Shown here: positions 4,011 through 50,895 of the stretch, piece by piece | Layout: each line of letters opens with the position of its first letter | How positions within the stretch are numbered: the stretch's first letter is position 1 | Source of the DNA: Entamoeba invadens IP1 | Taxonomy: Eukaryota; Evosea; Mastigamoebida; Endamoebidae | Length of the DNA stretch: 64,000 bases | Direction of reading: 5' to 3' | NCBI RefSeq assembly: GCF_000330505.1 | Contig: NW_004191750.1 | Span: 185,784 to 249,783 of the forward strand | Position numbers and translations under genes: made by a program | Notes under the pieces: generated by a model | Seen by the model: only the letters and a program-made list of their open reading frames with translations | What the model was told of the DNA's origin: nothing | Database searches by the model: none

Positions 4011-4463
4011 ATGAGTACAAGAGCAAGACTTTCACCAATATCAAGATCAGTCCGTCCTTGGGATAAAGAAGAAGACGCAAGACTCCTCGAAGCTGTCAGG
4101 GTCAATGGAGACTCCAACTGGGAAGTCATTGAAAGGTGTGTTGTAACTAGAAGCAGGAAGCAATGTAGAGAGAGGTACCATAATCATCTCAAGGTCTCAA
4201 TACAAAAAGGAGACTGGACGGTGTATGAAGACAATGTTATCCTTGAAAAGGTCAATATGTTCGGAAGAAGGTGGACACACATCTCATCCTTCTTACCACA
4301 TAGAGCTCCAAATTCAATCAAAAACCGATTCTATTCACATTTGATTAAACACTTGAACGACAACACCAAAGTGAATAAATCCCATTCTGACTCCGAACTC
4401 ACTGAGATTACACTTAGTGCGTTTGTCCCTACATCTCCCAGTCTTTACAAAATTATTATGTAA
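4011..4463 (+). CDS. R2R3-type Myb/SANT DNA-binding protein
   Basis: A 150-residue protein with two consecutive Myb repeats. Repeat 1 (about residues 18-65) starts RPWDKEEDARLLEAV and ends RKQCRERYHNHL. Repeat 2 (about 70-118) starts GDWTVYEDNVILEKV and carries the W..I...L phasing, ending IKNRFYSHLIK. The third conserved tryptophan positions are partly aliphatic, as is usual in protist Mybs. It should be a nuclear sequence-specific transcription factor; small Mybs are a large family in Entamoeba, some linked to stage conversion or stress. A short C-terminal tail ends F-V-P-x(5)-LY-x-II, closely echoed by the Myb gene at 44631-45068. Target genes cannot be inferred. Confidence 0.9.
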   Translation: MSTRARLSPISRSVRPWDKEEDARLLEAVRVNGDSNWEVIERCVVTRSRKQCRERYHNHLKVSIQKGDWTVYEDNVILEKVNMFGRRWTHISSFLPHRAPNSIKNRFYSHLIKHLNDNTKVNKSHSDSELTEITLSAFVPTSPSLYKIIM

Positions 4464-6123: not shown

Positions 6124-9100
6124 TTAAAACATTTTAGAGATTTTCGATGGTTTTGATGATTGTTTTGACAGACTAAGCTCTTCCAAGTATTTTAAAACCT
6201 CATCGAAGTCTGGTCTAATAAGGTCGTTTTGATCCCAACATCTTTTGATTAATTCTTTGAGTTCAGTCTTTTCATCAAAAGATGGTCGTAATCCACTTAC
6301 TATTTTCTCTTTGACTTCTGTGAAGAATTTACACTCAGAAAATGGGACTTTATTAGTCACCAATTCCCACAACACAATTCCGTATGAATACACATCGACT
6401 TTTGGAGTCGTTCGATGCTCTGAAATTACTTCCGGAGCAAGCCAATACGGGCATTCGACCTCATCTGTAGGACCTTCTTTGTCTTCAGTCGTTTCCTTTT
6501 CTTTCTCACTCTTTTGCTTAATTATTTTGACAGACATGCCAAAGTCGATGACTGCACAACTTTCAATTGTCCCTTGTGAGTCCGTGCGAAGCACAACATT
6601 TGGAGATTTCACGTCTCTGTGGATATACCCCATCTTATGAATAACGCCAAGGCCTTTAGCAACATCCGTTGCTATTTTCAATCGCATTTTCCAGTCAAAA
6701 GCGATTCCTTTGTTATCGTGGAGTGCATTGAACAAGTTGCCCCCATTGAAATATTCCATGACAATGCACAACGGTTTGACGGAGTATCCATAGATCGAAG
6801 CGACGTGAATATTATGTGGCGCACGAATAAATTTCATCTCTCTGAAGAACTCTTGCATGTAATTGGTGAACATCCCCTCCGCAGTTTGCGAGTCGTCCAT
6901 TTGTGAACTCGAAAAGTCCATCTGCGACGTTTTGATGATCACTTTCTCTCCAATTTGAAGGCCGATCGTGTCGTGAATGACTTCATATAAACTGATCACT
7001 GAATTCGACCCCGTCGCAATCCCCTTGATATACTGAAAGTCGCTGATATTCGTAAGCTTGTCAAACCGAAACGCAGACACAAAGAACTCAAAGACGGATA
7101 TCACCAAATTCACTCGACACTCCCCACACACTAAATACACATTCAACTCTTTCACACTCGCTTTTAATTGTTTCATATCAATTAAATGAATTAACCCATG
7201 CACTAAACACTGCGGACATAACACCGACATCTCATATTTCACTTTGTTCATCTCTAATAATGACTCAATCATCACACACGTCTCTTCTAACACACTACAC
7301 CCATGGAAACACACTGAATCACTCGTTAAAAGGTACCTCACTCGAACGTAAACACGCTTCTCGTCTAAATCACTTCTTACTAAGAGATATACTAATAACG
7401 CTCCATCTCGACACGTACATACCACACCTTGTTTCCATTGGTGTACCACTTCATACTTCAAGGAAGTAAAACAATTGATACAACTCACTAATTTGGTCGT
7501 GTGCGTTTGTAGAAGGTAAACACGTCCAACTTCAACTTCATTCTTCTTGTGGTACAGCGGCCACCCCTTCGGTACATACGGATTTTCAAGCAACTTCTTC
7601 GACTCGCACCGACACAACACACTCTGCGAAAACTCAGTCGTCAAACGCCGCGATATCTCGCGCTTCTCTCCAACTTCGTCGTCGTCGAGATTTAAGTAAG
7701 GGTATACCAATACACTCTCGTCACTTAAAGTAATCTGAGTGACATTCCTTCGTTCAATTTCAACAGCAGACACCGGCAAATTTTCAACACTTTTTGTTTT
7801 GAGGAGGTCTTCCTTGACAAATTTGATTTCTTTTGTCGAAACAAACGACGTCAAGTCCTTCACATCGGCCAAAAGGCCTTTCGTCACTCTCTTCGGGGTT
7901 TTCTGTCGGTCGGTACTCACTAAGGTGTATACCTCTTCAAACTGTTTTGTAAGACCAAAGCTCTTTGCGCACTTGTATGAGAGTGAGAAGCATATCCCAT
8001 AGTAACTCATCATTTCCAACAAAAATGGTTTACTCGACGCTTTAATGTGAAGTCGATCAAACAGTCGCCCATCACAAAACCCTCGGAGGAGTTCCCCTTT
8101 AAATATCGCGTCTTTGACCGCCTCAAAGAACGTCAAATCGACTAAAATGCGTTTGTCGGTTGCATTTGAAGACGTGGGAATGAAGCAATCGCGCGATTCG
8201 GGTAATGAAATGATGTACCCATTTTCTTGCAACCATTTTGAAATGACAAGACTTTGGTTGATGGGCAGATTTAACAGAGAAATGAACTCCGAAAATTGGG
8301 GTTCGGTCATATTGAACTGGGTAACACCAACAATCCCTAGTTCGTTCACAACTAGATCACATCCATCTTCACTCTTCTCGCTCCGCAGTTTAATTTCGTT
8401 GTTCAAATAACTTGCTAATTCACTATACTTCTTTTCTTTGTTCGACACTTGAATGTATTTGGTATTCAACACCCCATATTTCCCTAAATCTTTCACACTC
8501 AAGTCACTCTCTATCACTATCACTACCCCTTTCGTCACTCCAACAGACATCAACGCACTCAACACACGCTCACTCGTCTTCCCACAACTGTTCCGACACA
8601 CTACGTATAACTTACGACGGTTCTCCCACATCTTCTCTTCTATCGCCTTTATCTTGCCAATACAAAATTCAACCTTCTCCCCGTAACTGTCAATCTTCTT
8701 TCTTTTAATACTCGGCGAAAAGTAGAAACTCCCATTCGTTTCAACTACTCGTCCGTACTCCTTCATTTTCTTTTGAAGAATATTAAATACTTCACTACGA
8801 AAATCATCACCGGTAATAACCACTTTATCAATGTCTGTGACAGCTTCTATAACGCGATGTTGGTCTAATATCCTTTCCGCCTTTGCAGTAGAGTCAATGA
8901 ATGCCTTTTTCAAATTAAAAAGTTTCTTAAATAGTACACTTTTCCGCTTGATTCCATTGCCTCGAAAGTCAACCTCTTCCAATGTGGTCATAGAAAAGAA
9001 TTCGTAGTCTATCTTGAGAATCGCGTTATCTCGCACATCCAATTTCTTCAGCTTCAGATTCCACAAGTTATTTGGAATACATTTCAGCCCACAATTGCGC

Positions 9101-11942
9101 AGTTTGAGTTCAGTCAATTTGATCGGAGGGTTTGCGATGAACTCGTCGATGTTAAATATCGTGTTAGAAATATCAAGCGAAACGAGTTCGCTCATTTTAC
9201 TCAATTCATTTGGAAATCGTTTCAAGTCCTCCCCTATAAAGACTTCAAGCGATGGATTTAAACGGAAAATTGGTGTTATACCTTTGTTGACGTCTGCAAT
9301 TGGGTTATACGAGATGTCGAAGAAGAGGAGAGGTACTTGAATGAATGAAGGGAGGGAGATGATCAAATTGTTTCTCAAGTTCAAATTTTGAAGAGTCGTA
9401 AGTCTTGAGACCTCTTCAGTGACAACTCCAATTTTGTTTGACGACAAGTTAAGACTTCTCAGGTGCGGCAGTTGGCATATTTCCTTTGGAAACTCGGAGA
9501 GTTCATTTCCGGAGAGGTCTATAAGAGCCAGGTGTTGCAGATTAATGAGGTGTTGTGGTATTCTAACGATGTTTTGTTCTTTATTAAACAGTTCCGTTGT
9601 CTTCGTATCACACTTCGATATCTTCATGTCAAATTTTGAATTCTTTTCCATCAACACTCTCCACCGCTGGAAACAATAACAGTTCATCCCATTGATATGT
9701 CTCCACGTTAATGGTGTTGTGTCGTTCTGTGATTGTGTGTTATACAACGTATTCATATACAGACTCTTGTTCTTTGAAATTGTCGATATCACACCTTCAA
9801 GGGAAGACACATCGTTACGTTGGAACAAGTTATCAAACAACAAGAGCAGAAGCTCTTCATTGTATTGGAATTTCGAGAAGTTCTGCTTCATTACTGCGTC
9901 AATGGCCACTATAAGTAACACTAAGACTATTTCACTCTCAGCCATACTTTGCTTTTTCAGTATCACAATAAGACCTTCAAGTGTTCTATAGAAAGGATCG
10001 GATATCACTTCAGCTAACACTTCAAACGCTACGACGTTGTCTTCGCTATTTAAGTCTCTTGGGACCAACAATACGTCTTTCTTCTCATTCAATTGTTTGA
10101 CTAATATGATCGACAGCGAGACAAACCCATCAACACATCGCGAGATCATCATGACCTTCTCGTCAAATTCATCATTTGAAGTATCCGTCGTGTGTCGCCC
10201 TACTAATATTTGCATGCGACTAAAACATCTCTCCATTTCTCCTATTGGTTCGACTGTTCTACAAGCAAACTGATTCAAATTTTCCACTTTCACTGTCGGC
10301 GTTTTGTTGGTGACTCCATTCGAAACGGAACACTCTCGAACAGTACCAAATCTGAGCAACAAACTCCCACTTGGAGATTTGAATGAAACAACAATTGGTC
10401 GTTCAGCAATCCCATATAAAGGGAGGGGTGGGGTGTACCAATTAAAGCATTTCTGTGTGATGTTCATTCTCTTGGCGTCGCGTTCAATTGCGTCCTTTTC
10501 GAGTGTCGGTACTCTACTTGTTATTAATAGTAACAGTAATAGTATTCTTATCATTCTTATGCGCTAACTATACTCAATAGTAAATGATACTAGAAACAAA
10601 CAAATCGACGATGTAGTCTTGTTGTAACTTCGAAAGTAACTGAACAAAATCGTCTTTAATACATTCAAACACTTTGAATGTCGTGCAGACCAAATTCTTC
10701 CCAACAACACGCAAATAGAAAATGTTGTTCTGAGCACCAGTGATTGTTTTATCTCCATACACTTTGACCGCTGCAATGTTAATGACGGAGATCTCAGACA
10801 CAAATTTGTTGACTTGCACCTCGTCGAACGGACAGAAGATAATTCGAAACGTCGTGATGAAAAGGATGCCAGAGACAACGTCTTCGTTCTTCTCTCGAGA
10901 CCCCCACAACGACCCATCAACGCACATGTACTTCAGACATTCTGCGCGTTCGTACTTTCTTAACACGACTTCGCCTTCTAAGTGATTTAAAATATTTGAG
11001 TCGTTGGAGCAGTCTGCCTTCCACAACACAAGTAGTGAGTCGATGACATTCGTAGAAATTTGGTTGTCTGTGCAAGCCATAGCCTTCACAAAGCAAGACA
11101 CCATCTCATCAATTTCTTGCTTTTCCATTGCAGTGATGAGCGATAATTCAATAAGAAAGTTAATAGTTTTATTAACTATTTTCTCCCTCCTTTCGCCAAT
11201 AGCACTTCTTATAGTTTGTCTGTTGCCGACTAAGTCCATCGGATTTGCTTTATACATTTTTGAGAGTTTCTTCAGGAATTCCGGAGGGAGAATTGGTGTT
11301 GGGAGGAACAAGAAGAACAGTTTGAGTAATATAAAGGCGGTCCTGACGTTTTCCAAGTCTCGTGTTGATGGAATGACATTAAACGCGTCGATCATTCGTT
11401 TCATTTGGGAGAAGTGCGCGTTCAGAAAATTTGCATTTGCGTTGAGTTTCACTTGATATTAATTTGTTATTAATTAGTTATTAATTAACAACTCTGCTGA
11501 CTCGACATGAGAAGAACAAACTAAAGAAAGACGAGTAGTCGTGTTCTAATGAAAACAATTTGATCTTTTTCGCATCCTTTTTACTCACTCCAAGGCGTTG
11601 TAATGACTTTGACGTCTCGTGTTCATTGATATGACGCAACGTCATCGACAGAATTGTTTTGTTTGGCGTCAACAATTGAATACAAGGGAACGCCCCTATT
11701 GGTTTATCTTTAAATAACGTGGGATTGGCTCGAACACTCTTTTCGATGTATTTCAAAATTTCAACAAGACACAATGGGACGCCTTCCATGTTTAAGTCAC
11801 GAGTCGTCATGTCATCTATTTCGCAATAGAACGAGTTGAACTGTTTGTCTTTGTTTGAAGACGTTGAAAGGGGGTTAATAAGAAAATAGCCAGAAGTTTG
11901 TCGTCGAGGAGATGGACTTGGTTGTTGAGAGGGCTCCGCCAT
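6124..11942 (-). CDS. RhoGAP-like / PH-GRAM / inactive myotubularin / LRR / GTPase-like / TKL kinase (IMLRK family)
   Basis: Three ORFs join through two introns: exons 11942-11522, 11451-10602 and 10513-6124 (421+850+4390 = 5661 nt, 1886 residues). Both donors are GTTTGT and the acceptors are CAAG and GTAG; phases 1 and 2 match exactly. Domains (approximate residues): RhoGAP-like helices 60-270, with LKLFFLFLPTPILP; PH-GRAM 310-420; a myotubularin phosphatase fold 430-690, recognisable by DPFYRTLEGLIVILKK and the following FQYNEELLLLLFDNL; leucine-rich repeats 740-955; a P-loop-like CRNSCGKTS near 1065 and a COR-like region; a Cys-pair region; and a kinase about 1615-1875 with IHRDVKSPN, DFG and LAPE. 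The phosphatase CX5R loop is absent (LLVPRDLNSEDN in its place), so lipid binding without catalysis is expected. The family was named from Entamoeba as inactive-myotubularin/LRR/ROCO/kinase. Reading 10554 as the start gives a false signal peptide made of intron sequence. Confidence 0.8.
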
Positions 11943-20146: not shown

Positions 20147-21708
20147 TCATCGAGTAGTAAAGAATGTGTCTTCAGGGTTGTAGAGTTGCGCGAGTAATCT
20201 GTAGATGTAAGAAGGAGGAACACCATTCCTGTGAATTAGTAAATAAAATATAATAATATAATAATAAAATTACAATAATACAATAATACAATAATACAAT
20301 AATACAATAATATAATAATATAATAATATAATAATATAATAATATAATAATATAATAATATAATAATATAATAATATAATAATACTAATAAATATAATTA
20401 TAGTATAGTAATTACCATATAATAAAATATAGTATAAATTTATTAAAAAAGAGTGGAACAAACTCATTGGTGATAAACAGATTAATCCAATCTGGCGATA
20501 TATATTCGAACGTTGAGTTAATCACACGGGTGTACTTTGCCTCTTCGATTTGGTAACTACTTTTGTCTGCGGTTTCTTCGTCACTTTTTCTGTCGAGTAA
20601 CAACTCGAGTCCAGTTTGGGTTGATTGTATTGAAGGTTTTGATAATACAGCGGGCATGATTGGTAGTGGTGATTGTATCAACGCGAAGTCTGTGTCGTTT
20701 GTTGGGAATATTGGGGAGATCTTAAAAGTCCCGGTACAGACATAGACGGGGACTCGGAAGTGTGTCGCAACACAACACAAATTGAACGCACCAGCAGCTG
20801 CAATGAGACCTCCATTAGCCAAAACCGTATGGCACCCCAACACAATTTTGTTGACATGTGGTAATACCGAGAAGAGTGCAGACTCGGGGAATAAATCAGC
20901 TTTGATGCCTCTATTCTGTAATTCTAAAACTATCTCTTCACCATCTTTGCGTTGTAAACTATCCACTACTATCACATAAAACGTCCGAACAGTTTTCGCT
21001 CCGGCAATGAACTCTAAGACTGTCTTGGATTTCCCAAATAATAAGACAACATCACTCCATATTAATACTATTCTTATTACTATTCTTATTAATAAAATCT
21101 TTACAGACATAAACCATCCAATTCTGGTTTTTTTTATTATAAATAAACTAGAATGCTATCAAAGAAAAAGAAGAACAAACTTGTCGTTGATATACGCCTC
21201 GCCTTGCTCCGCTATACTTTTATATAACGTCTTGAGCTCAGTCTGATATTCTTTAAGCGATTCAATGAGTTCCTTCTTGAACTTTTTCATGTCGACGTTA
21301 CTGATGGACGGGGACTCGGAAACAAGTCGGTGTAATTCGTTCGACTGGACGTCAAACTCGACATTGGATAGACTTCGCTCCACCTCACGAACAATAAACA
21401 TCACGCGGCGGACAATGTTCACCGTCGAGAATTCTATCTTGGAACCTCGTTGGAGATATTTCCCCATACCCTGAAGTACTGACATTAACTCGGACGGTCG
21501 TTCAAAGTCTTCTTTCTTCACCAATTTCATGATTTGCGCTAATATCGGGTTAGCAGACTGGAACGCACCATATATAATTCTACACATGACTTCTAATTGC
21601 TATCCAGTATTATTCGTTATAATTATTTTACTATTAAAGTATAGTACATTTGATATATAAGAATAACAAACCCTCGTCGCATTCTTTGGAGAATCTCTTC
21701 AAGCTCAT
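20147..21708 (-). CDS. EIF2B2: Translation initiation factor eIF2B subunit beta, 4 exons
   Basis: Exons 21708-21672, 21592-21181, 21054-20464 and 20228-20147 (37+412+591+82 = 1122 nt, 373 residues). All donors are GTTTGTT. eIF2B is the guanine-nucleotide exchange factor for eIF2; beta is in the regulatory core. Motifs: IVRRVMFIVREVE (N-terminal helices), DVVLLFGKSKTVLEF, KIVLGCHTVLANGGL, FKISPIFP, FEYISPDWINLFITN, and, only after the last splice, ENGVPPSYIYRL. That last exon restores the conserved C-terminus and confirms the intron. The exon-3 acceptor could instead be an AAG at 21073, adding six residues. The first 12 residues rest on splice phase alone; an overlapping frame there (21670-21780) looks protein-like but cannot be spliced in frame. 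Confidence 0.88.
20272..20385. repeat. Microsatellite of 8-bp units inside the last eIF2B-beta intron
   Basis: About five copies of ACAATAAT followed by about nine of ATAATAAT (unit boundaries approximate). It lies wholly within the intron 20229-20463 and makes that intron much longer than the others here. Confidence 0.9.
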
Positions 21709-31970: not shown

Positions 31971-34361
31971 TTACTCATATGCGTCTTGTTCTTCCTCTTC
32001 TTTAGGCGGCTCTACAGGTTTGTTCACTCCAAGAGACTTCAAGAACGCAACAGACTTCGCTCGTACCTCTTCCAGTCGTTTGTATATTTCCATGAACCCT
32101 GGTCTTTTATTTGGAGTGATGTTCCATGTATCTAACATGATTTTATAGACTAAATCTCCTATTGGATCTTCTTCTTCTTCTTTTTCAGCTTCATCATCTT
32201 CGACTCCATAGTCATTTTCTTCTTGAACAACAGGCTTTGGTGCATATCCCCCAGCTTCTTTTTCTCTTTTGAACGGGTTTTTCAAAAAATCCGGCTTTGC
32301 TAGTCGAACCCCAGACTGAACCGCATCAAGAACGGCGGGAGCACCTACAAGATTGGAATATGGTAGATTTCCACCACTAAATAATTCCCAAATGGTCACG
32401 CCATACGCCCATATATCATTGAAGACATCAAACTTCTTCGATGCTAAAGCCTCCGGCGCAGTCCATTTGAATGGGATCTTGGCATCATCCTTGGCTTGGT
32501 ACTCCCCACTCTCAGACACTCTTGACAACCCAAAGTCGGAGATTCTTCCTCTCAACCCACTTGCGTCTTCATACCACAACACATTTCTCAGAGCCAAGTC
32601 TCTATGAATAATACTTAATGATCCCAAATATGCCATCCCAGCTGCTATATCCTCAGCTACTTGCAGTAAATCCATAAATGGCTTTTTAACCTTTTTTACT
32701 AGTTTAAGCACATCGCCCTTTGCCAAAGCAAGAATCATATACAATTTATCTTCTCCAGTAGCTTCAAAGTGATGTTTGTATATCCCATACATAGTCGACA
32801 AATTTGGATGTTTCAACTTGGAACTCACAAAGGCCTCCTTAGCTATATCAACGAGTTGAGCATTTTGCTCCTCTTTTGAAATCACCTTCTTCGGCTTCGT
32901 TGGGTCTTTTTCTACCTTTTTGGCACTCCCATCTGGTGGTGGTATTCCAAACGGATCCGCATCCTCCGGATCTCCAGATATCCCTTTCATGGCTACTTCA
33001 GTGGTCCCTAGCCAAAGTGCTTTGTAGACTAACCCAAAGGCACCTTGGCCTAACGCAGAGATCGGCACAACATCTGTTAAGTATCCAAATCGTTCGAAGA
33101 GGGACATATCAAACTTGACATCTTCATTATAGACTTCGAGTCGCGCTCGAGAGATCTTCTTTGCAGTCACCACGTCGATTTTCATATCAGTGAATTCCTC
33201 TTGTTTTGCGACAGAAAATGAGTCGTCGCTGTTATACCCATTTTCAAGTAATAACTGTTTTAAAGCATCATTGTCATCAAGACCAGCCAATTTTAACGTC
33301 TCTAAGACTTTCTCATCAAATTCGGGTTTGTCCTCAAACGACACCAAAACAAATTCAGTGGTCCCAATGATGACTTTCGTGTTATTTTTCCGAAGAACAG
33401 CCAAATTCATTTCTTTATCAAAAGAGAGAAATTGTAATCCCTCTGTAGCTCCTAAGACAAATATTTCTTTTCCTTTCGAACAGATTGACCCGCCTTTATT
33501 AGTGATTTTAATCTCTTCTGGATTTTCTATTAATTGTTTGGAGACGACATCTAATAATAAAATCTTGTCATTTGAGAGGCCAAACCCTTCTCCGCCACCT
33601 AATATAACTCCAAGCTTTTGGTCCGGCATGTATACACAATTCGGACTTAACAATTTAATTGGAAGTTGGGCGACTGTGACCCATTCACTCTTTTTATTAC
33701 TGAAGGCATCGTACATGAAAATGTCCTTGTTATGCTCATCTCCTATTTTCCCACCAATGACAAAGATCTTCCCATCAGTAGTTACAAAAGAGCCATGTTT
33801 AAATATCACTCCAAATGGTAATTCACTGGTCGACACTACCTTCTCAGTCTTCATATCAATTATAACAAAGGAATTACTCTTCGTCTGATTTCCGGTGCGA
33901 AATCCGATGATATAAAGTTTGTCGTTGTATAACACTACACTGTTCTCAACTCCAAAATCACTGATCCCTTCTATTTTGATGAAAAAGACTTCTTTGGTCT
34001 CCATATTCACTTTAATGATCTTCGTTAAGTTCTTTTTCGAAGAAACACCACCAACAAAGTAAATAAAAGTCCCATCAGTGACACCCGCAGACTTGGAAAA
34101 CGCAAACGTCTCTTCGTCATACTCATCAGACTTCGAATTGAACTTATCCATAGTCCACCGTGCATTTGGAATACTGAATGAGTAAACGTTTTTGTTGTAT
34201 TCTGTGGCACCTTGTGTTAATGGAATTTCTCCTCCAAAGACATAGAGAAGACCATTCACCATAAACATGTTAAATTCTCGTAGACCTGTAACAGGCAAAG
34301 TTTTGGCTTCACCAATTAACACTTTCTTTTGAATGTGCTCACCCATTTCAACTTTAATCAT
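31971..34361 (-). CDS. Kelch-repeat protein with tyrosine-kinase-type catalytic domain
   Basis: A 796-residue protein. Residues 1-330 hold kelch-like repeats (LLYVFGGE, GTFIYFVGGV, KLYIIGFR, GKIFVIGG, LGVILGGG), giving a beta-propeller for protein contacts. A short helical linker (about 355-385) follows. The kinase spans about 430-775: glycine loop GQGAFGLVYKA, lysine in EVAMKG, a Pro/Lys-rich insert, catalytic loop IIHRDLALRNVL, ISDFGLSRV, and IPFKWTAPEAL with a following WAYGVTIWELFSGG. HRDLALRN and P-x-KWTAPE are hallmarks of true tyrosine kinases rather than Ser/Thr or typical TKL kinases. An acidic insert (about 725-745) lies in the C-lobe. No SH2 or membrane segment is seen, so it should be cytosolic. 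Confidence 0.9.
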   Translation of the reverse strand: MIKVEMGEHIQKKVLIGEAKTLPVTGLREFNMFMVNGLLYVFGGEIPLTQGATEYNKNVYSFSIPNARWTMDKFNSKSDEYDEETFAFSKSAGVTDGTFIYFVGGVSSKKNLTKIIKVNMETKEVFFIKIEGISDFGVENSVVLYNDKLYIIGFRTGNQTKSNSFVIIDMKTEKVVSTSELPFGVIFKHGSFVTTDGKIFVIGGKIGDEHNKDIFMYDAFSNKKSEWVTVAQLPIKLLSPNCVYMPDQKLGVILGGGEGFGLSNDKILLLDVVSKQLIENPEEIKITNKGGSICSKGKEIFVLGATEGLQFLSFDKEMNLAVLRKNNTKVIIGTTEFVLVSFEDKPEFDEKVLETLKLAGLDDNDALKQLLLENGYNSDDSFSVAKQEEFTDMKIDVVTAKKISRARLEVYNEDVKFDMSLFERFGYLTDVVPISALGQGAFGLVYKALWLGTTEVAMKGISGDPEDADPFGIPPPDGSAKKVEKDPTKPKKVISKEEQNAQLVDIAKEAFVSSKLKHPNLSTMYGIYKHHFEATGEDKLYMILALAKGDVLKLVKKVKKPFMDLLQVAEDIAAGMAYLGSLSIIHRDLALRNVLWYEDASGLRGRISDFGLSRVSESGEYQAKDDAKIPFKWTAPEALASKKFDVFNDIWAYGVTIWELFSGGNLPYSNLVGAPAVLDAVQSGVRLAKPDFLKNPFKREKEAGGYAPKPVVQEENDYGVEDDEAEKEEEEDPIGDLVYKIMLDTWNITPNKRPGFMEIYKRLEEVRAKSVAFLKSLGVNKPVEPPKEEEEQDAYE

Positions 34362-35554: not shown

Positions 35555-36087
35555 GTATAATTTGTATTTCAATTATACTATTATAATAATAATTATTATC
35601 ATTAATTTATTAAAACATTATAATTGTAAAAGTAAATTATTATTTCATATATTTTAGACGAAAAATAATAACAATTTTAATAACAATTTATTTTTTTGTT
35701 GTTTGTTTTGTGGGTTTCTAAAAATAGCATTTTTTATTAATAATTTATAATATCCAATTTAGTTCTACTTTTTCGCATTTTAAACTGTTAATATGTTTTT
35801 TTATTTCCAAAAAAAACGAAAATAATATATACTTTTAAAAACTATATTTATAGTTAATTCGATTCTAATTGAAAGATAATTTGTTGTTACATATTTTTTT
35901 GAAAAAAAAAACATCCAGTTACAAGAACACAAATTATTAGTTTTGATTCAATTAAATTATAGTTTACAGTTTGTTTCGAATTCTTTTCCAATAAATATCA
36001 ATTCGGTTTTTTTGTTGTTTTTGGAAATAAAACACATCACAGGAAAATACGCATTAAAAACGTACAAACATATCTGTGAACATTCAA
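35555..36087. other. Divergent intergenic region
   Basis: A+T-rich spacer between the HEAT-like gene and the expansin gene. No gene seen. Confidence 0.6.
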
Positions 36088-37641
36088 ATGTTGTTTATAC
36101 TTCTAACGACCATTTCAAGTGCATACCTGACTCCATTGTCCGATTGTCAAGCAGCAAGAATTACTTATTATGATAGTTATAGCTCAGAAAATGTACGTTG
36201 TCAGTTGGGGACTGCTAATATGGACACACTCTTTCGTTGCGCACCCAATACAGCTTTTCTCAACAAGGCTTCTCAGTGTGGTATATGTTATGAAGCTGTT
36301 GGTGAGTTAGGTTCTGTACGATTTATGGTGACTGATGAGTGTCCTGCCAGTTCTAACAGTGAACATTGCTCGGGTGATTACACACACTTTGATATGGCTG
36401 CAAATGCTTTCCCGAGTCTATGTAAATCATCATTAGGAATATGTAACATAACATATAGAATGGTTGCTTGTGACCACACGGGGAATATCCAAGCGAAACT
36501 CAAAGATGGTTCAGGCAATGGGTACATTGGTGCAATTTTTCGAAACCACGTTGTTGGAATAAAGAAAGTGCAAATTTCGTTGGGTGGAAATACACACGAT
36601 TTGACACGAGACGAGTCGAACCAATGGGAGTACAATGGAATCTTGTCGTTGCCAATCACTTACTTGATAACGTCAATCGATGACGACACAGTCAATTTGG
36701 TTATCAATGATTACTCCACAACAACACTCCACGAAGCAGAAAGGAACTTCAAAATCCCACAAGACACATTCTTCGACATCTCGACACTTCAAAAAACTAC
36801 AAAGACAAGCTCACAAGAATGTTGTCAAATGCCTGAGTACAACACGGTCTATACTGATCGTTTTGAGACTCCATTTTTGTTCTTAACTGGAGGAACTAAA
36901 AATGAGTGTGACTCAAATAAATATGAGGGAAGCTGTGCGGTTTCTGTTAAGATAGCACAATGGGGATACTTCAAAATTACAACGGGAGACCACCAATTGT
37001 ACGCCAAGTCGATCAAAGCAGTCACATTCTATGCAAAGGCAACAAAAGCATCAAATTTGGATTTGTGGGCTGAGACCGTTTCGGGGTTCAAAAAAACAAT
37101 TTCAATGACAACTAATTTCCAGATGTACACAATTAACTTGAGTGAAATGGGTGTGAAAGAAAGCGACCAATATTGGTACGGCATTCAGTTCCAAAACACT
37201 GACCCAAGTGAAGTCACGTACTACTTGGACGCAATAATATTGGTCTACGACGACGAGGTGTGTACAGAAAAGTGTTCTGATCACACATCAACTTGCAAAA
37301 CAATTGTTGAGAGTAGTGACGATACATCTTCAGCTCAAAAGAGTTCACAACCCGACGAGAGCAGTAGTAGTGAAGGTAAAGAAAGTAATGCCATGAGTAG
37401 CGACAACACACAATCAAGTGAAGAGAGTAGCAACAATAGCGGTGAAAGCAGTGGCAAACCAAGTGGTGAGAGTAGTGAAAGTAAAGAAAGTAGTGATAAA
37501 CCGGGCGTCATAAGTAGTGACAACACGCCATCTGGTGGAGAGAGTGGAAATAATGAAGAAAGTAAAGTCCCGGGGCAAGACGGAAGTATTTCTATTTTCT
37601 GTTTAACTGCTGCCTTTATCTGTGTTGTCGTTCTGGTTTAA
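36088..37641 (+). CDS. Secreted, GPI-anchored expansin-like protein
   Basis: A 517-residue protein; the ATG at 36088 gives a clean signal peptide (MLFILLTTISSAYLTP). Residues 20-125 form an expansin double-psi beta-barrel: ARITYYDSYS, several paired cysteines, CGICYEAVG, VTDECP, THFDMAANAF and YRMVACDHTG. Residues 130-220 match the second, beta-sandwich binding domain. Residues 240-390 form a further beta-rich module, possibly carbohydrate binding. A long Ser/Glu/Asn-rich stalk (about 410-495), likely O-glycosylated, ends in a hydrophobic tail (ISIFCLTAAFICVVVLV) typical of a GPI signal. Expansins loosen polysaccharide networks without hydrolysis; for a cyst-forming amoeba the cyst wall (chitin) is a plausible target, as inference. 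The HFD aspartate expected in active expansins is present. Confidence 0.88.
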   Translation: MLFILLTTISSAYLTPLSDCQAARITYYDSYSSENVRCQLGTANMDTLFRCAPNTAFLNKASQCGICYEAVGELGSVRFMVTDECPASSNSEHCSGDYTHFDMAANAFPSLCKSSLGICNITYRMVACDHTGNIQAKLKDGSGNGYIGAIFRNHVVGIKKVQISLGGNTHDLTRDESNQWEYNGILSLPITYLITSIDDDTVNLVINDYSTTTLHEAERNFKIPQDTFFDISTLQKTTKTSSQECCQMPEYNTVYTDRFETPFLFLTGGTKNECDSNKYEGSCAVSVKIAQWGYFKITTGDHQLYAKSIKAVTFYAKATKASNLDLWAETVSGFKKTISMTTNFQMYTINLSEMGVKESDQYWYGIQFQNTDPSEVTYYLDAIILVYDDEVCTEKCSDHTSTCKTIVESSDDTSSAQKSSQPDESSSSEGKESNAMSSDNTQSSEESSNNSGESSGKPSGESSESKESSDKPGVISSDNTPSGGESGNNEESKVPGQDGSISIFCLTAAFICVVVLV

Positions 37642-48489: not shown

Positions 48490-50895
48490 TCATTTTGCTA
48501 CCCAGAGATGTCTCTTCTTATCAAGTCGACACAAGTTCTTCAACAAAGACTTGAAAACACGTGTCTCATTGATCCCAGAAATGTCATTAGAAAACTCTTT
48601 GAGAACATCATCGCTCGAAACTTTGCCACCTTTCTTTTCAATGAAATTGGCTAGACGCTCTGCCAAAGTTAGTCCTTCAACGTTCTCCCCTTTTTCTTGC
48701 TTTGGTACTTGAGGGGACGACACCACAGACTCTTTAGAAACAACAGCGGAAGAACTTTTTCTTCTCCCCATGATCTGATTCCGTTTGACCAGTTTTAACT
48801 TGTAAATAGCCTCTTCCGCTATTTTAGCAGTCTCTTCGTCTGTCAACCTTTTCTCTTCATCCGACAGCGTGTTTGCCTTCTCCATCAAAATTTCGTCGAT
48901 CACCTTTTCATCGCCTTCAACGACTTTTCCCATCAAATCAATTTTGTTCTTCTTCTCGTCTTTCTCGTCGTCTTTGTCACTCTGGTCGTCACTGTCTACT
49001 TGTTTCTTCGATTCTTTTTTTGGCACTGTATCTGTCAACTGGAACAATTCCTTCACAATTTGCTTCTTAAATTGCTTTCTGAGTACTTCATTTTGGTCGC
49101 TGAGTATCTTGTTTGATATAATTTCCTTTGATATCTGTCTATTGTATATCCTCTCTTCTATCGTCCCAGAACATATCAATTTGTATATCGAAACGTTCTT
49201 AATCTGCCCTATACGCAACGTTCGTTCTTTGGCCTGAGAGTCCACAGTTGGATTCCAGTCGGGGTCAAACAAGACCACCCGATCAGCTCCCGTCAAATTA
49301 ATACCCAACCCACCAACACGTGTTGTTAATATGAAACAATTGATAGTGTCGTCATGATTAAACGCATCGATCAATGAACTCCGCTTCCCAGCCGCAACAT
49401 CGCCATCCATTCGTAAGAATATATACTTGTTGTACTCTAACACCTTCTGGAGAATATTCAACATCTGCTTGGTCTGACAAAAGATTAGTGCCTTGTGCTT
49501 CTCCTTCCTCCAATTGTCTAAGAGACTTAATAAGACTTTGACCTTTGCACTCTCCATGACATTCTCGTGGTCCATCTCAACGTTCTTATTCAACAGAAGT
49601 GGGTGGTTACACACTTTGCGCAAGTAATCGATCGCTACAAGCAAATTGGTATCGCCGTTGATCACTTTTGTAACTGAAAAGGAGTTGATGTACTCTAAGT
49701 ATAACTCTCGTTGTTTCAGGGAAAGCTTGACAAAGACCACATTCTCCGTTTTGTTGGGTAAAGTCGGTAACACATCTTTTTTGAGTCTTCGCAATAAAAA
49801 TGGCGCAATCGTGTCTTTCAGCGCTTTCGCGCATTTTAAAGCGGCAGTGAATTGAAAGTAGCTCGCAGAAGTATAAGACCCAAATTTGATTGGGTCGATG
49901 AATTGTTGTTTGAAGACGGGAAGTGTCCCCAACTTGCCGGGGTACACAAAGTCGAACAGCGACCAGAGCTCGGCCAAATTGTTTTGAATAGGGGACCCCG
50001 ACAGAATCAATCTGTTTTCGCTTCTCAATGATTTTATCGCAATCGAAATGCCACTTTTAGGGTTCTTAATTTTATGTCCTTCATCAAGTATAGTGTACAA
50101 ATATGTCACCCGATTCAAATCATTCAATTTGTTTCTCACAAAGTCGTATGTTGTGACAAATATACAATTGGACGCCTGTGTGAGTAACTCAAGATTGTCT
50201 TGCCCACTTGATGAAAGTGCTCGATGGAGCACTATAACCCTAAAAAAGGGGACAAATCGATGGGCTTCAGAAACCCAATGTGATATTAAAGTTAGTGGAC
50301 ATATGATTAAAATGTTACCGACGCGCATCTCTCCACGAGTCGTAAGAACATCACTTTTTGATTGTGTACATTTGGCATATAACGTCGAGTGAAGTCCTTC
50401 TAAGAAGGAAAGGACCATCAGAGTCTTTCCTAAACCCATTTCATCACCAACTATCCCTCCTCCTCCTTGTTTATATAACTCGTACATCCACTTCACACCA
50501 ACTCGCTGATGTTCATAGAGTTCTTCATATAACTTTTGTCGTATTAAAAATCCGGAACGAAACGTCTTTAACTCGCCTTCGGGCTTCACATTGTTTTCAG
50601 CGTCTAAATGTGAACTCCCTTTTTGGCTCAAACGTTCATGGAAATACTCTAAAAAGACATCATCACTCCACTCGCGGACATCTTCTTTATTCTCCACAAA
50701 TACAGCGTCCGTCCCTTTCGCATCTTCGTCTTGTCCTAATGGATTCAGTTTTCCTTTTTTAATCAATTCTTCTCGCGATGAATCGTCATCATCAACTAAA
50801 CTTATTCCACTCGCTTTTGTATCTGGTGCTGTAATCTCTTGGACATCATTTGACTCTTCACTGTGAAACTCCTCGTCATCAAACTTCCTTTTCAT
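48490..50895 (-). CDS. ERCC6: SNF2-family ATPase, ERCC6/CSB (Rad26) type
   Basis: An 801-residue protein. The helicase core starts at about residue 125: LYEHQRVGVKWMYEL, Walker A GDEMGLGKT, ICPLTLISHW, Walker B LDEGHKIKNP (DEGH is usual in the CSB group), LSGSPIQNNLAELWSLFDF, then the second lobe with KALIFCQTKQ, RMDGDV, TTRVGGLGINLTGADRV, FDPDWNP and RTLRIGQIKNV. The following IEERIYNRQISKEIISNKIL matches the post-core CSB element. The C-terminal 60 residues (LAERLANFIEKKGGK to LCRLDKKRHLWVAK) resemble the CSB winged-helix end. CSB remodels stalled RNA polymerase II in transcription-coupled repair. The N-terminal domain is short compared with animals (about 1490 residues) and closer to yeast Rad26. 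Confidence 0.9.
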   Translation of the reverse strand: MKRKFDDEEFHSEESNDVQEITAPDTKASGISLVDDDDSSREELIKKGKLNPLGQDEDAKGTDAVFVENKEDVREWSDDVFLEYFHERLSQKGSSHLDAENNVKPEGELKTFRSGFLIRQKLYEELYEHQRVGVKWMYELYKQGGGGIVGDEMGLGKTLMVLSFLEGLHSTLYAKCTQSKSDVLTTRGEMRVGNILIICPLTLISHWVSEAHRFVPFFRVIVLHRALSSSGQDNLELLTQASNCIFVTTYDFVRNKLNDLNRVTYLYTILDEGHKIKNPKSGISIAIKSLRSENRLILSGSPIQNNLAELWSLFDFVYPGKLGTLPVFKQQFIDPIKFGSYTSASYFQFTAALKCAKALKDTIAPFLLRRLKKDVLPTLPNKTENVVFVKLSLKQRELYLEYINSFSVTKVINGDTNLLVAIDYLRKVCNHPLLLNKNVEMDHENVMESAKVKVLLSLLDNWRKEKHKALIFCQTKQMLNILQKVLEYNKYIFLRMDGDVAAGKRSSLIDAFNHDDTINCFILTTRVGGLGINLTGADRVVLFDPDWNPTVDSQAKERTLRIGQIKNVSIYKLICSGTIEERIYNRQISKEIISNKILSDQNEVLRKQFKKQIVKELFQLTDTVPKKESKKQVDSDDQSDKDDEKDEKKNKIDLMGKVVEGDEKVIDEILMEKANTLSDEEKRLTDEETAKIAEEAIYKLKLVKRNQIMGRRKSSSAVVSKESVVSSPQVPKQEKGENVEGLTLAERLANFIEKKGGKVSSDDVLKEFSNDISGINETRVFKSLLKNLCRLDKKRHLWVAK

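What the first reader, a model, noticed from the sequence alone, without database searches (positions are those of the whole stretch)
6124..11942. One 1886-residue signalling protein hidden in three ORFs; its apparent signal peptide is intron
Donors GTTTGT at 11521 and 10601 and acceptors ending at 11452 and 10514 join three ORFs with matching phases, and the total is a multiple of three. The splice rejoins the PH-GRAM domain to the myotubularin linker (DAIERDAKRMN). Read alone, the last ORF would be taken for a receptor kinase because intron sequence encodes a run of leucines.
Basis: partly seen in the sequence, partly recalled or inferred. Interest (0 to 1): 0.75.

Follow-up and report, generated by a model that had tools for sequence, protein, structure and literature searches.

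The report
Spliced gene for amoeba LRRK2-like kinase
The three reading frames are the exons of one ordinary, already catalogued gene of the amoeba Entamoeba invadens, which makes a large signalling kinase built like human LRRK2 whose lipid-phosphatase and GTP-switch parts lack the sequence motifs such enzymes use.

Summary
Exons 11942-11522, 11451-10602 and 10513-6124 (minus strand) join in frame to 1886 residues without a stop. The joined protein is identical to a public record, 'serine-threonine protein kinase, putative' of Entamoeba invadens IP1, so it is not hidden. RNA-seq-confirmed introns of this species carry an extended GTTTGT donor (PMC4053983, passages). A phase-1 GTTTGT donor sits at the place of intron 1 in 4 of 8 paralogue loci. 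A paralogue frame without interruption bridges junction 2, and another bridges both junctions. The leucine run is intron-encoded.

It carries RhoGAP-like, PH-GRAM, dead myotubularin, leucine-rich repeat, degenerate Roc-COR and kinase regions: the IMLRK architecture described by Kerk and Moorhead (2010) in E. histolytica and Dictyostelium. The myotubularin CX5R and Roc Walker A motifs are absent here and in the paralogue frames as far as readable; the kinase motifs are kept. I infer a kinase steered by non-catalytic domains; nothing was tested at the bench. Verdict: new member of a known kind, low interest. Transcript proof of these two introns was not available here.

The parts
11522..11942 (-). 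Exon 1 (coding, residues 1-140 and the first base of codon 141)
11452..11521 (-). Intron 1, phase 1, GTTTGT donor, AAG acceptor
   Evidence: donor at the same place in 4 of 8 paralogue loci; extended GTTTGT consensus in PMC4053983
10602..11451 (-). Exon 2
10514..10601 (-). Intron 2, phase 2, GTTTGT donor, tandem AAG/TAG acceptor
   Evidence: junction bridged by homologues
10514..10554 (-). False signal peptide: intron letters that read MIRILLLLLLITS when the last ORF is taken alone
6124..10513 (-). Exon 3 with stop codon
11523..11741 (-). Residues 68-140: divergent stretch before the RhoGAP-like part; SAM-like in some paralogues, weak
   Evidence: no Pfam match in exon 1 itself
11150..11410 (-). 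Residues 155-241: RhoGAP-like region; no arginine-finger motif seen upstream
10604..10984 (-). Residues 297-423: PH-GRAM-like region
9664..10272 (-). Residues 505-707: myotubularin-like phosphatase region
10039..10065 (-). Residues 574-582 VPRDLNSED, near the place of the CX5R catalytic motif (HCSDGWDR)
8887..9573 (-). Residues 738-966: leucine-rich repeats
7054..8862 (-). Residues 975-1577: degenerate Roc-COR
8788..8811 (-). Residues 992-999 GDDFRSEV, the likely place of the Roc P-loop (read by eye)
6187..7020 (-). Residues 1589-1866: TKL-type protein kinase domain

Best explanation
A three-exon gene of Entamoeba invadens encodes an IMLRK protein: a ROCO-family (LRRK2-like) kinase with a RhoGAP-like region, a PH-GRAM-like region, a myotubularin region without its catalytic motif, leucine-rich repeats, a degenerate Roc-COR and a C-terminal TKL-type kinase. 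Shown by computation: gene structure, domain order, missing CX5R and Walker A motifs, kept kinase motifs. Inferred: PH-GRAM and dead myotubularin place it on phosphoinositide membranes or on active myotubularins, LRR and COR mediate assembly, and kinase output is set by binding partners rather than by a GTP switch.
For: Joined protein identical to the public E. invadens IP1 protein. Family profiles against the PDB: myotubularins E 6e-19 to 2e-17; the best four of 7 Roc-COR hits are ROCO chains, E 2.7e-4 to 2.3e-3; the best 13 of 30 RhoGAP-profile hits are RhoGAP-domain proteins, best E 6e-5. Kinase E=1e-39 and LRR_8 E=8e-12. HRD, DFG, K1618, E1649, N1729 and APE present; no Walker A in the protein and no CX5R in its myotubularin region. 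Nine loci of this kind in the genome, a lower bound. Matches the published IMLRK description (PMC2927912).
Against: Single-protein scores are weak: myotubularin 23.3 bits against a cut-off of 25 for the whole protein (28.1 for the cut piece), RhoGAP and COR-B below cut-off. A genome search with COR-A found nothing. Both structure models failed (mean pLDDT 36.7 and 32.5). The kinase glycine loop is degenerate (IATGSNSVI). Two more protein searches found only the protein itself, so no E. histolytica orthologue was shown. No transcript evidence was seen.
Confidence: 0.75

Rival explanations
1. The last ORF (6124-10554) is transcribed alone and makes a secreted or membrane receptor kinase with a signal peptide.
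For: It opens with ATG and a hydrophobic run (mean hydropathy 3.46 over nine residues).
Against: The run is made of intron letters with a GTTTGT donor upstream and an acceptor at its end. The PH-GRAM to myotubularin join is bridged by L011, L018 and E. marina P0002. The LRR and myotubularin regions resemble cytosolic proteins (family knowledge).
Confidence: 0.04
2. The two introns are right, but the protein is alternatively spliced or intron-retaining at these places in a regulated way.
For: Tandem in-frame acceptor at intron 2. PMC4053983 reports 276 introns that were confirmed and also had more than 5 reads inside them (passage).
Against: Retention of either intron gives stops. No data on this gene were seen.
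Confidence: 0.15
3. The gene is a decaying pseudogene, and the missing motifs reflect general decay.
For: CX5R and Walker A are missing and the RhoGAP part is divergent.
Against: 1886 codons without a stop, kinase motifs kept, and the same motifs missing in the paralogue frames and in E. marina P0002.
Confidence: 0.03

Closest known systems
[quoted passage not shown] section 10 and part 1 of 2 of section 6 read; passages)
   Same: Same order: RhoGAP in five of the Entamoeba sequences, PH-GRAM, inactive myotubularin, LRR, divergent ROCO, mostly intact kinase; nine reported there and nine loci found here.
   Different: Different species; one-to-one orthology was not tested. They report one E. 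histolytica member with possibly working Roc residues (EHI_048230); none with a Walker A was found in the frames examined here.
Dictyostelium Roco9 and Pats1 (as described in PMC2927912; not fetched)
   Same: IMLRK architecture; Roco9 also has an N-terminal RhoGAP.
   Different: Not compared by sequence here.
P0003, a transcript-derived protein without a species name in the output
   Same: Myotubularin end without CX5R, LRR, Roc-COR, kinase.
   Different: Keeps a Walker A motif, GQHSVGKS.
LRRK2/LRRK1 and prokaryotic ROCO proteins
   Same: LRR, Roc-COR and (in LRRKs) kinase in the same order.
   Different: No myotubularin or PH-GRAM; their Roc binds GTP (family knowledge).
Inactive animal myotubularins such as MTMR5 and MTMR9-13 (from PMC6563779, passages)
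   Same: PH-GRAM followed by a phosphatase fold without a working CX5R.
   Different: No LRR, ROCO or kinase.

Membership tests
IMLRK | Myotubularin-like region without the CX5R motif | tested here: met
   Profile hits myotubularins; no C-x5-R within the region; the two C-x5-R in the protein lie elsewhere, at residues 770 and 1067
IMLRK | PH-GRAM before the myotubularin region | tested here: met
   Profile aligns to the GRAM part of MTMR2 ahead of the phosphatase (10.4 bits) and to BBS5; Pfam GRAM in 2 of 8 members, not in this one
IMLRK | Leucine-rich repeats | tested here: met
   LRR_8 E=8.1e-12, over the cut-off
IMLRK | ROCO (Roc plus COR) region | tested here: met
   Best four of 7 profile hits are ROCO chains, E 2.7e-4 to 2.3e-3; COR-B E=0.0079, below cut-off; COR-A not found in the genome
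IMLRK | C-terminal kinase of TKL type | tested here: met
   PK_Tyr_Ser-Thr E=1e-39; Roco4, TAK1, RAF and RIPK1 among the PDB matches
ROCO GTPase with a working switch | Walker A (GxxxxGK[ST]) in Roc | tested here: not met
   No such motif anywhere in the protein
ROCO GTPase with a working switch | GTP binding and hydrolysis | not testable with these tools
   Needs an assay
Active myotubularin | CX5R catalytic motif | tested here: not met
Active RhoGAP | Arginine finger in a GIFR-like motif before the matched region | tested here: inconclusive
   No [IFV][FY]R in residues 1-250; the profile match begins just after the arginine-finger place of p50RhoGAP (place recalled)
LRR receptor kinase | Signal peptide and membrane span | tested here: not met
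   The signal-like run is intron-encoded. Highest 19-residue hydropathy mean 2.08, at residue 614 inside the myotubularin region

The most novel reading that the evidence does not exclude
The modules upstream of the kinase (RhoGAP, myotubularin, Roc) have all lost catalysis in this Entamoeba family, so the protein is a LRRK2-like kinase that runs without a GTP cycle: natural evidence that COR and LRR can govern a ROCO kinase on their own. In addition, a SAM-like helical module may sit within the RhoGAP-like region, before the place of its arginine finger.
Probability: 0.35. Interest if true: 0.45.

Novelty: new member of a known kind. Interest (0 to 1): 0.2.

Why it matters
It is a clean example of how single-ORF reading can mislead in a protist: a false signal peptide would turn a cytosolic kinase into a receptor. 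It extends the IMLRK family, described in E. histolytica, to E. invadens, the laboratory model of encystation, with at least nine loci. If the missing Roc motif means no GTP switch, the family is a natural test of how ROCO kinases are regulated without GTP, a question that bears on LRRK2. That idea was already put forward by Kerk and Moorhead.

Tried and rejected
GTTTGT count as evidence: rejected, since 5 sites against a shuffle mean of 3.7 is no excess.

CGKT (residues 1067-1070) as the Roc P-loop: rejected. The profile alignment to 3dpu places that stretch later in the Roc fold; the likely P-loop place reads GDDFRSEV, by eye.

SAM domain in exon 1: suggestive only. In the PDB 4 of 12 hits are SAM constructs (E 0.034, 0.082, 0.087 and 1.7; that these are SAM domains is recalled), the other 8 are unrelated. 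Pfam SAM_1 matches 2 of 9 members, best E=0.014; the best SAM-type match is SAM_SMF, E=0.0047, in one member; the segment of this protein has none.

'FF' before junction 1 as a remnant of the RhoGAP GIFR motif: spacing did not fit; not claimed.

AlphaFold models of residues 975-1886 (5 rows) and 1-720 (2 rows): mean pLDDT 36.7 and 32.5, too poor for a fold search, so none was run.

Acceptors of intron 1 in L011 and L012 were not resolved. Anchors for the intron-1 comparison were chosen by hand.
Full report
What it is. The window lies in Entamoeba invadens. The best database match to exon 3 is P0001, an E. invadens IP1 protein at 100% identity; its longest contig has 774,236 bases, which is also the length of the contig that holds the window in its own assembly. 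The gene model is therefore already public, named 'serine-threonine protein kinase, putative'. I take that record to be a computational annotation.

Splice evidence. Both introns begin GTTTGT, are 70 and 88 nt long, have lower GC than the exons (0.27 and 0.26 against 0.40-0.41) and hold stops in the frames that would be read through. GTTTGT occurs 5 times in the gene span, no more than shuffles give (mean 3.7 of 200), so the motif alone proves nothing. In the E. invadens genome paper, introns confirmed by RNA-seq have an extended GTTTGT donor while unconfirmed ones show only GT, and 2,470 of 5,894 predicted introns were confirmed (PMC4053983, passages). Whether these two are among them I could not see.

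Homology across the junctions. At least nine loci in the genome carry a myotubularin-like piece and a kinase of this type: this one and L011-L018. Eight pass the Pfam myotubularin cut-off; the L018 locus matches only at E=0.586. I could anchor the place of junction 1 in 7 of the 9. Phase-1 GTTTGT is there in this gene and in L012, L013, L015 and L016; L011 has GTTTGC; L017 has no donor. L018 was not anchored but its frame runs on over the region; L014 could not be examined. Intron 1 thus looks like an old family intron. Junction 2 is bridged by single alignments to an uninterrupted L011 frame (residues 288-688, E=6e-19, with a short gap near the junction), an uninterrupted L018 frame (42-676, E=5e-7) and the annotated E. 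marina protein P0002 (91-681, E=6e-18); the last two span junction 1 as well. Identities are near 20%. The position of intron 2 was not found shared. Its acceptor is tandem (AAG ending 10517, TAG ending 10514), both in frame.

The false signal peptide. ORF 6124-10554 starts inside intron 2 and reads MIRILLLLLLITSR; the leucines are intron letters.

Domains. Pfam on the whole protein: kinase E=1e-39, LRR_8 E=8.1e-12, myotubularin E=3.5e-5 (23.3 bits, cut-off 25), RhoGAP E=0.017, below cut-off. Family profiles built here and compared with all PDB sequences reach further. PH-GRAM plus myotubularin (8 sequences; P0002, and L016 which is partly unreadable, left out): 8 hits, six myotubularin chains at E 6e-19 to 2e-17 and two BBS5 chains at E 0.014 and 0.035; 8 of 8 members match Pfam myotubularin and 2 of 8 match GRAM. 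Roc-COR (8 sequences; P0002, and L017 which is partly unreadable, left out): 7 hits, the best four being 3dpu, 4wnr, 6hlu and 8r4b at E 2.7e-4 to 2.3e-3 (3dpu is called ROCO in PMC2927912; for the others that is recalled), the other three at E 0.21 to 0.55. COR-B matches 2 of 8 members, this one at E=0.0079, below cut-off; a genome search with COR-A found nothing, while its control rang in 1 of 14 genomes. RhoGAP (6 sequences: this one, L011, L012, L013, L018, P0002; L014-L017 left out): 30 hits, the best 13 RhoGAP-domain proteins (for RalA-binding protein 1 recalled) at E 6e-5 to 0.053; most of the remaining 17 are PI3-kinase p85 chains or designed proteins. Five of 6 members match Pfam RhoGAP, this segment at E=0.00045, below cut-off.

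Lost and kept motifs. The place of CX5R reads VPRDLNSED; the only two C-x5-R in the protein lie elsewhere. No Walker A pattern occurs in this protein, in the 12 paralogue frames scanned as far as readable, or in P0002; P0003, from an unnamed species, has one (GQHSVGKS) and also lacks CX5R. The kinase keeps K1618, E1649, HRD, N1729, DFG and APE, though its glycine loop is degenerate (IATGSNSVI). HRD with DFG is present in 8 of the 9 E. invadens loci; L017 has HRN. These are sequence readings, not assays.

Comparison with what is known. Kerk and Moorhead (PMC2927912; section 10 and part 1 of 2 of section 6 read; passages) named this architecture IMLRK, with nine members in E. histolytica and two in Dictyostelium. 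They report N-terminal RhoGAP domains in five of the Entamoeba sequences, poor conservation of Roc residues with one possible exception, and all critical kinase residues in 7 of 9. They proposed membrane placement through PH-GRAM, pairing with active myotubularins, and kinase control without Roc GTPase activity. Two later papers repeat the finding (PMC6563779 and PMC4104024, passages). A full-text search for 'IMLRK' listed three papers and one for E. invadens with myotubularin listed three; no title concerns E. invadens IMLRK genes, but I did not read all of these papers. The library holds open-licence papers only. So: a new member of a known kind, whose sequence is already public.

Mechanism, by basis. 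Shown by sequence: domain order, missing motifs, kinase motifs. From family knowledge: PH-GRAM regions bind phosphoinositides, inactive myotubularins pair with active ones, COR mediates dimerisation. Inferred: the kinase is brought to phosphoinositide membranes, assembles through LRR and COR, and is controlled by partners rather than by a GTP cycle. I put the chance that Roc has no nucleotide switch at about 0.55.

Limits. Two further protein searches returned only the protein itself (1 hit each among 4,736 and 6,334 candidates), because that search needs shared short words; no E. histolytica orthologue was therefore shown. Both structure predictions failed. No transcript data were available.

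Noticed in passing
window 31971-34361 (-): A 796-residue ORF with Kelch repeats and a TKL-type kinase domain (Pfam E 1e-16 and 8.8e-50), a second unusual kinase in the window.
   Followed up: no
window 48490-50895 (-): An 801-residue ORF with SNF2-related and helicase C domains (Pfam E 1.8e-73 and 1.5e-24).
   Followed up: no
window 20412-21110 (-): ORF matching the initiation factor 2B family (Pfam E 6.3e-31), the match covering only the latter part of the profile, so probably one exon of a longer gene.
   Followed up: no
window 4011-4463 (+): Small ORF with two Myb repeats (Pfam E 3.8e-27).
   Followed up: no
window 36076-37641 (+): 521-residue ORF with a weak DPBB_1 match (E 6.3e-4, below cut-off).
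   Followed up: no
window 10514-10519 (-): Tandem in-frame acceptor AAG/TAG at intron 2, which could give two proteins differing by one residue.
   Followed up: partly
L017 (kinase part of its 1620-residue frame): Paralogue whose kinase reads HRN instead of HRD, a likely pseudokinase; PMC2927912 reports a D-to-N change in EHI_135010. Orthology not tested.
   Followed up: no
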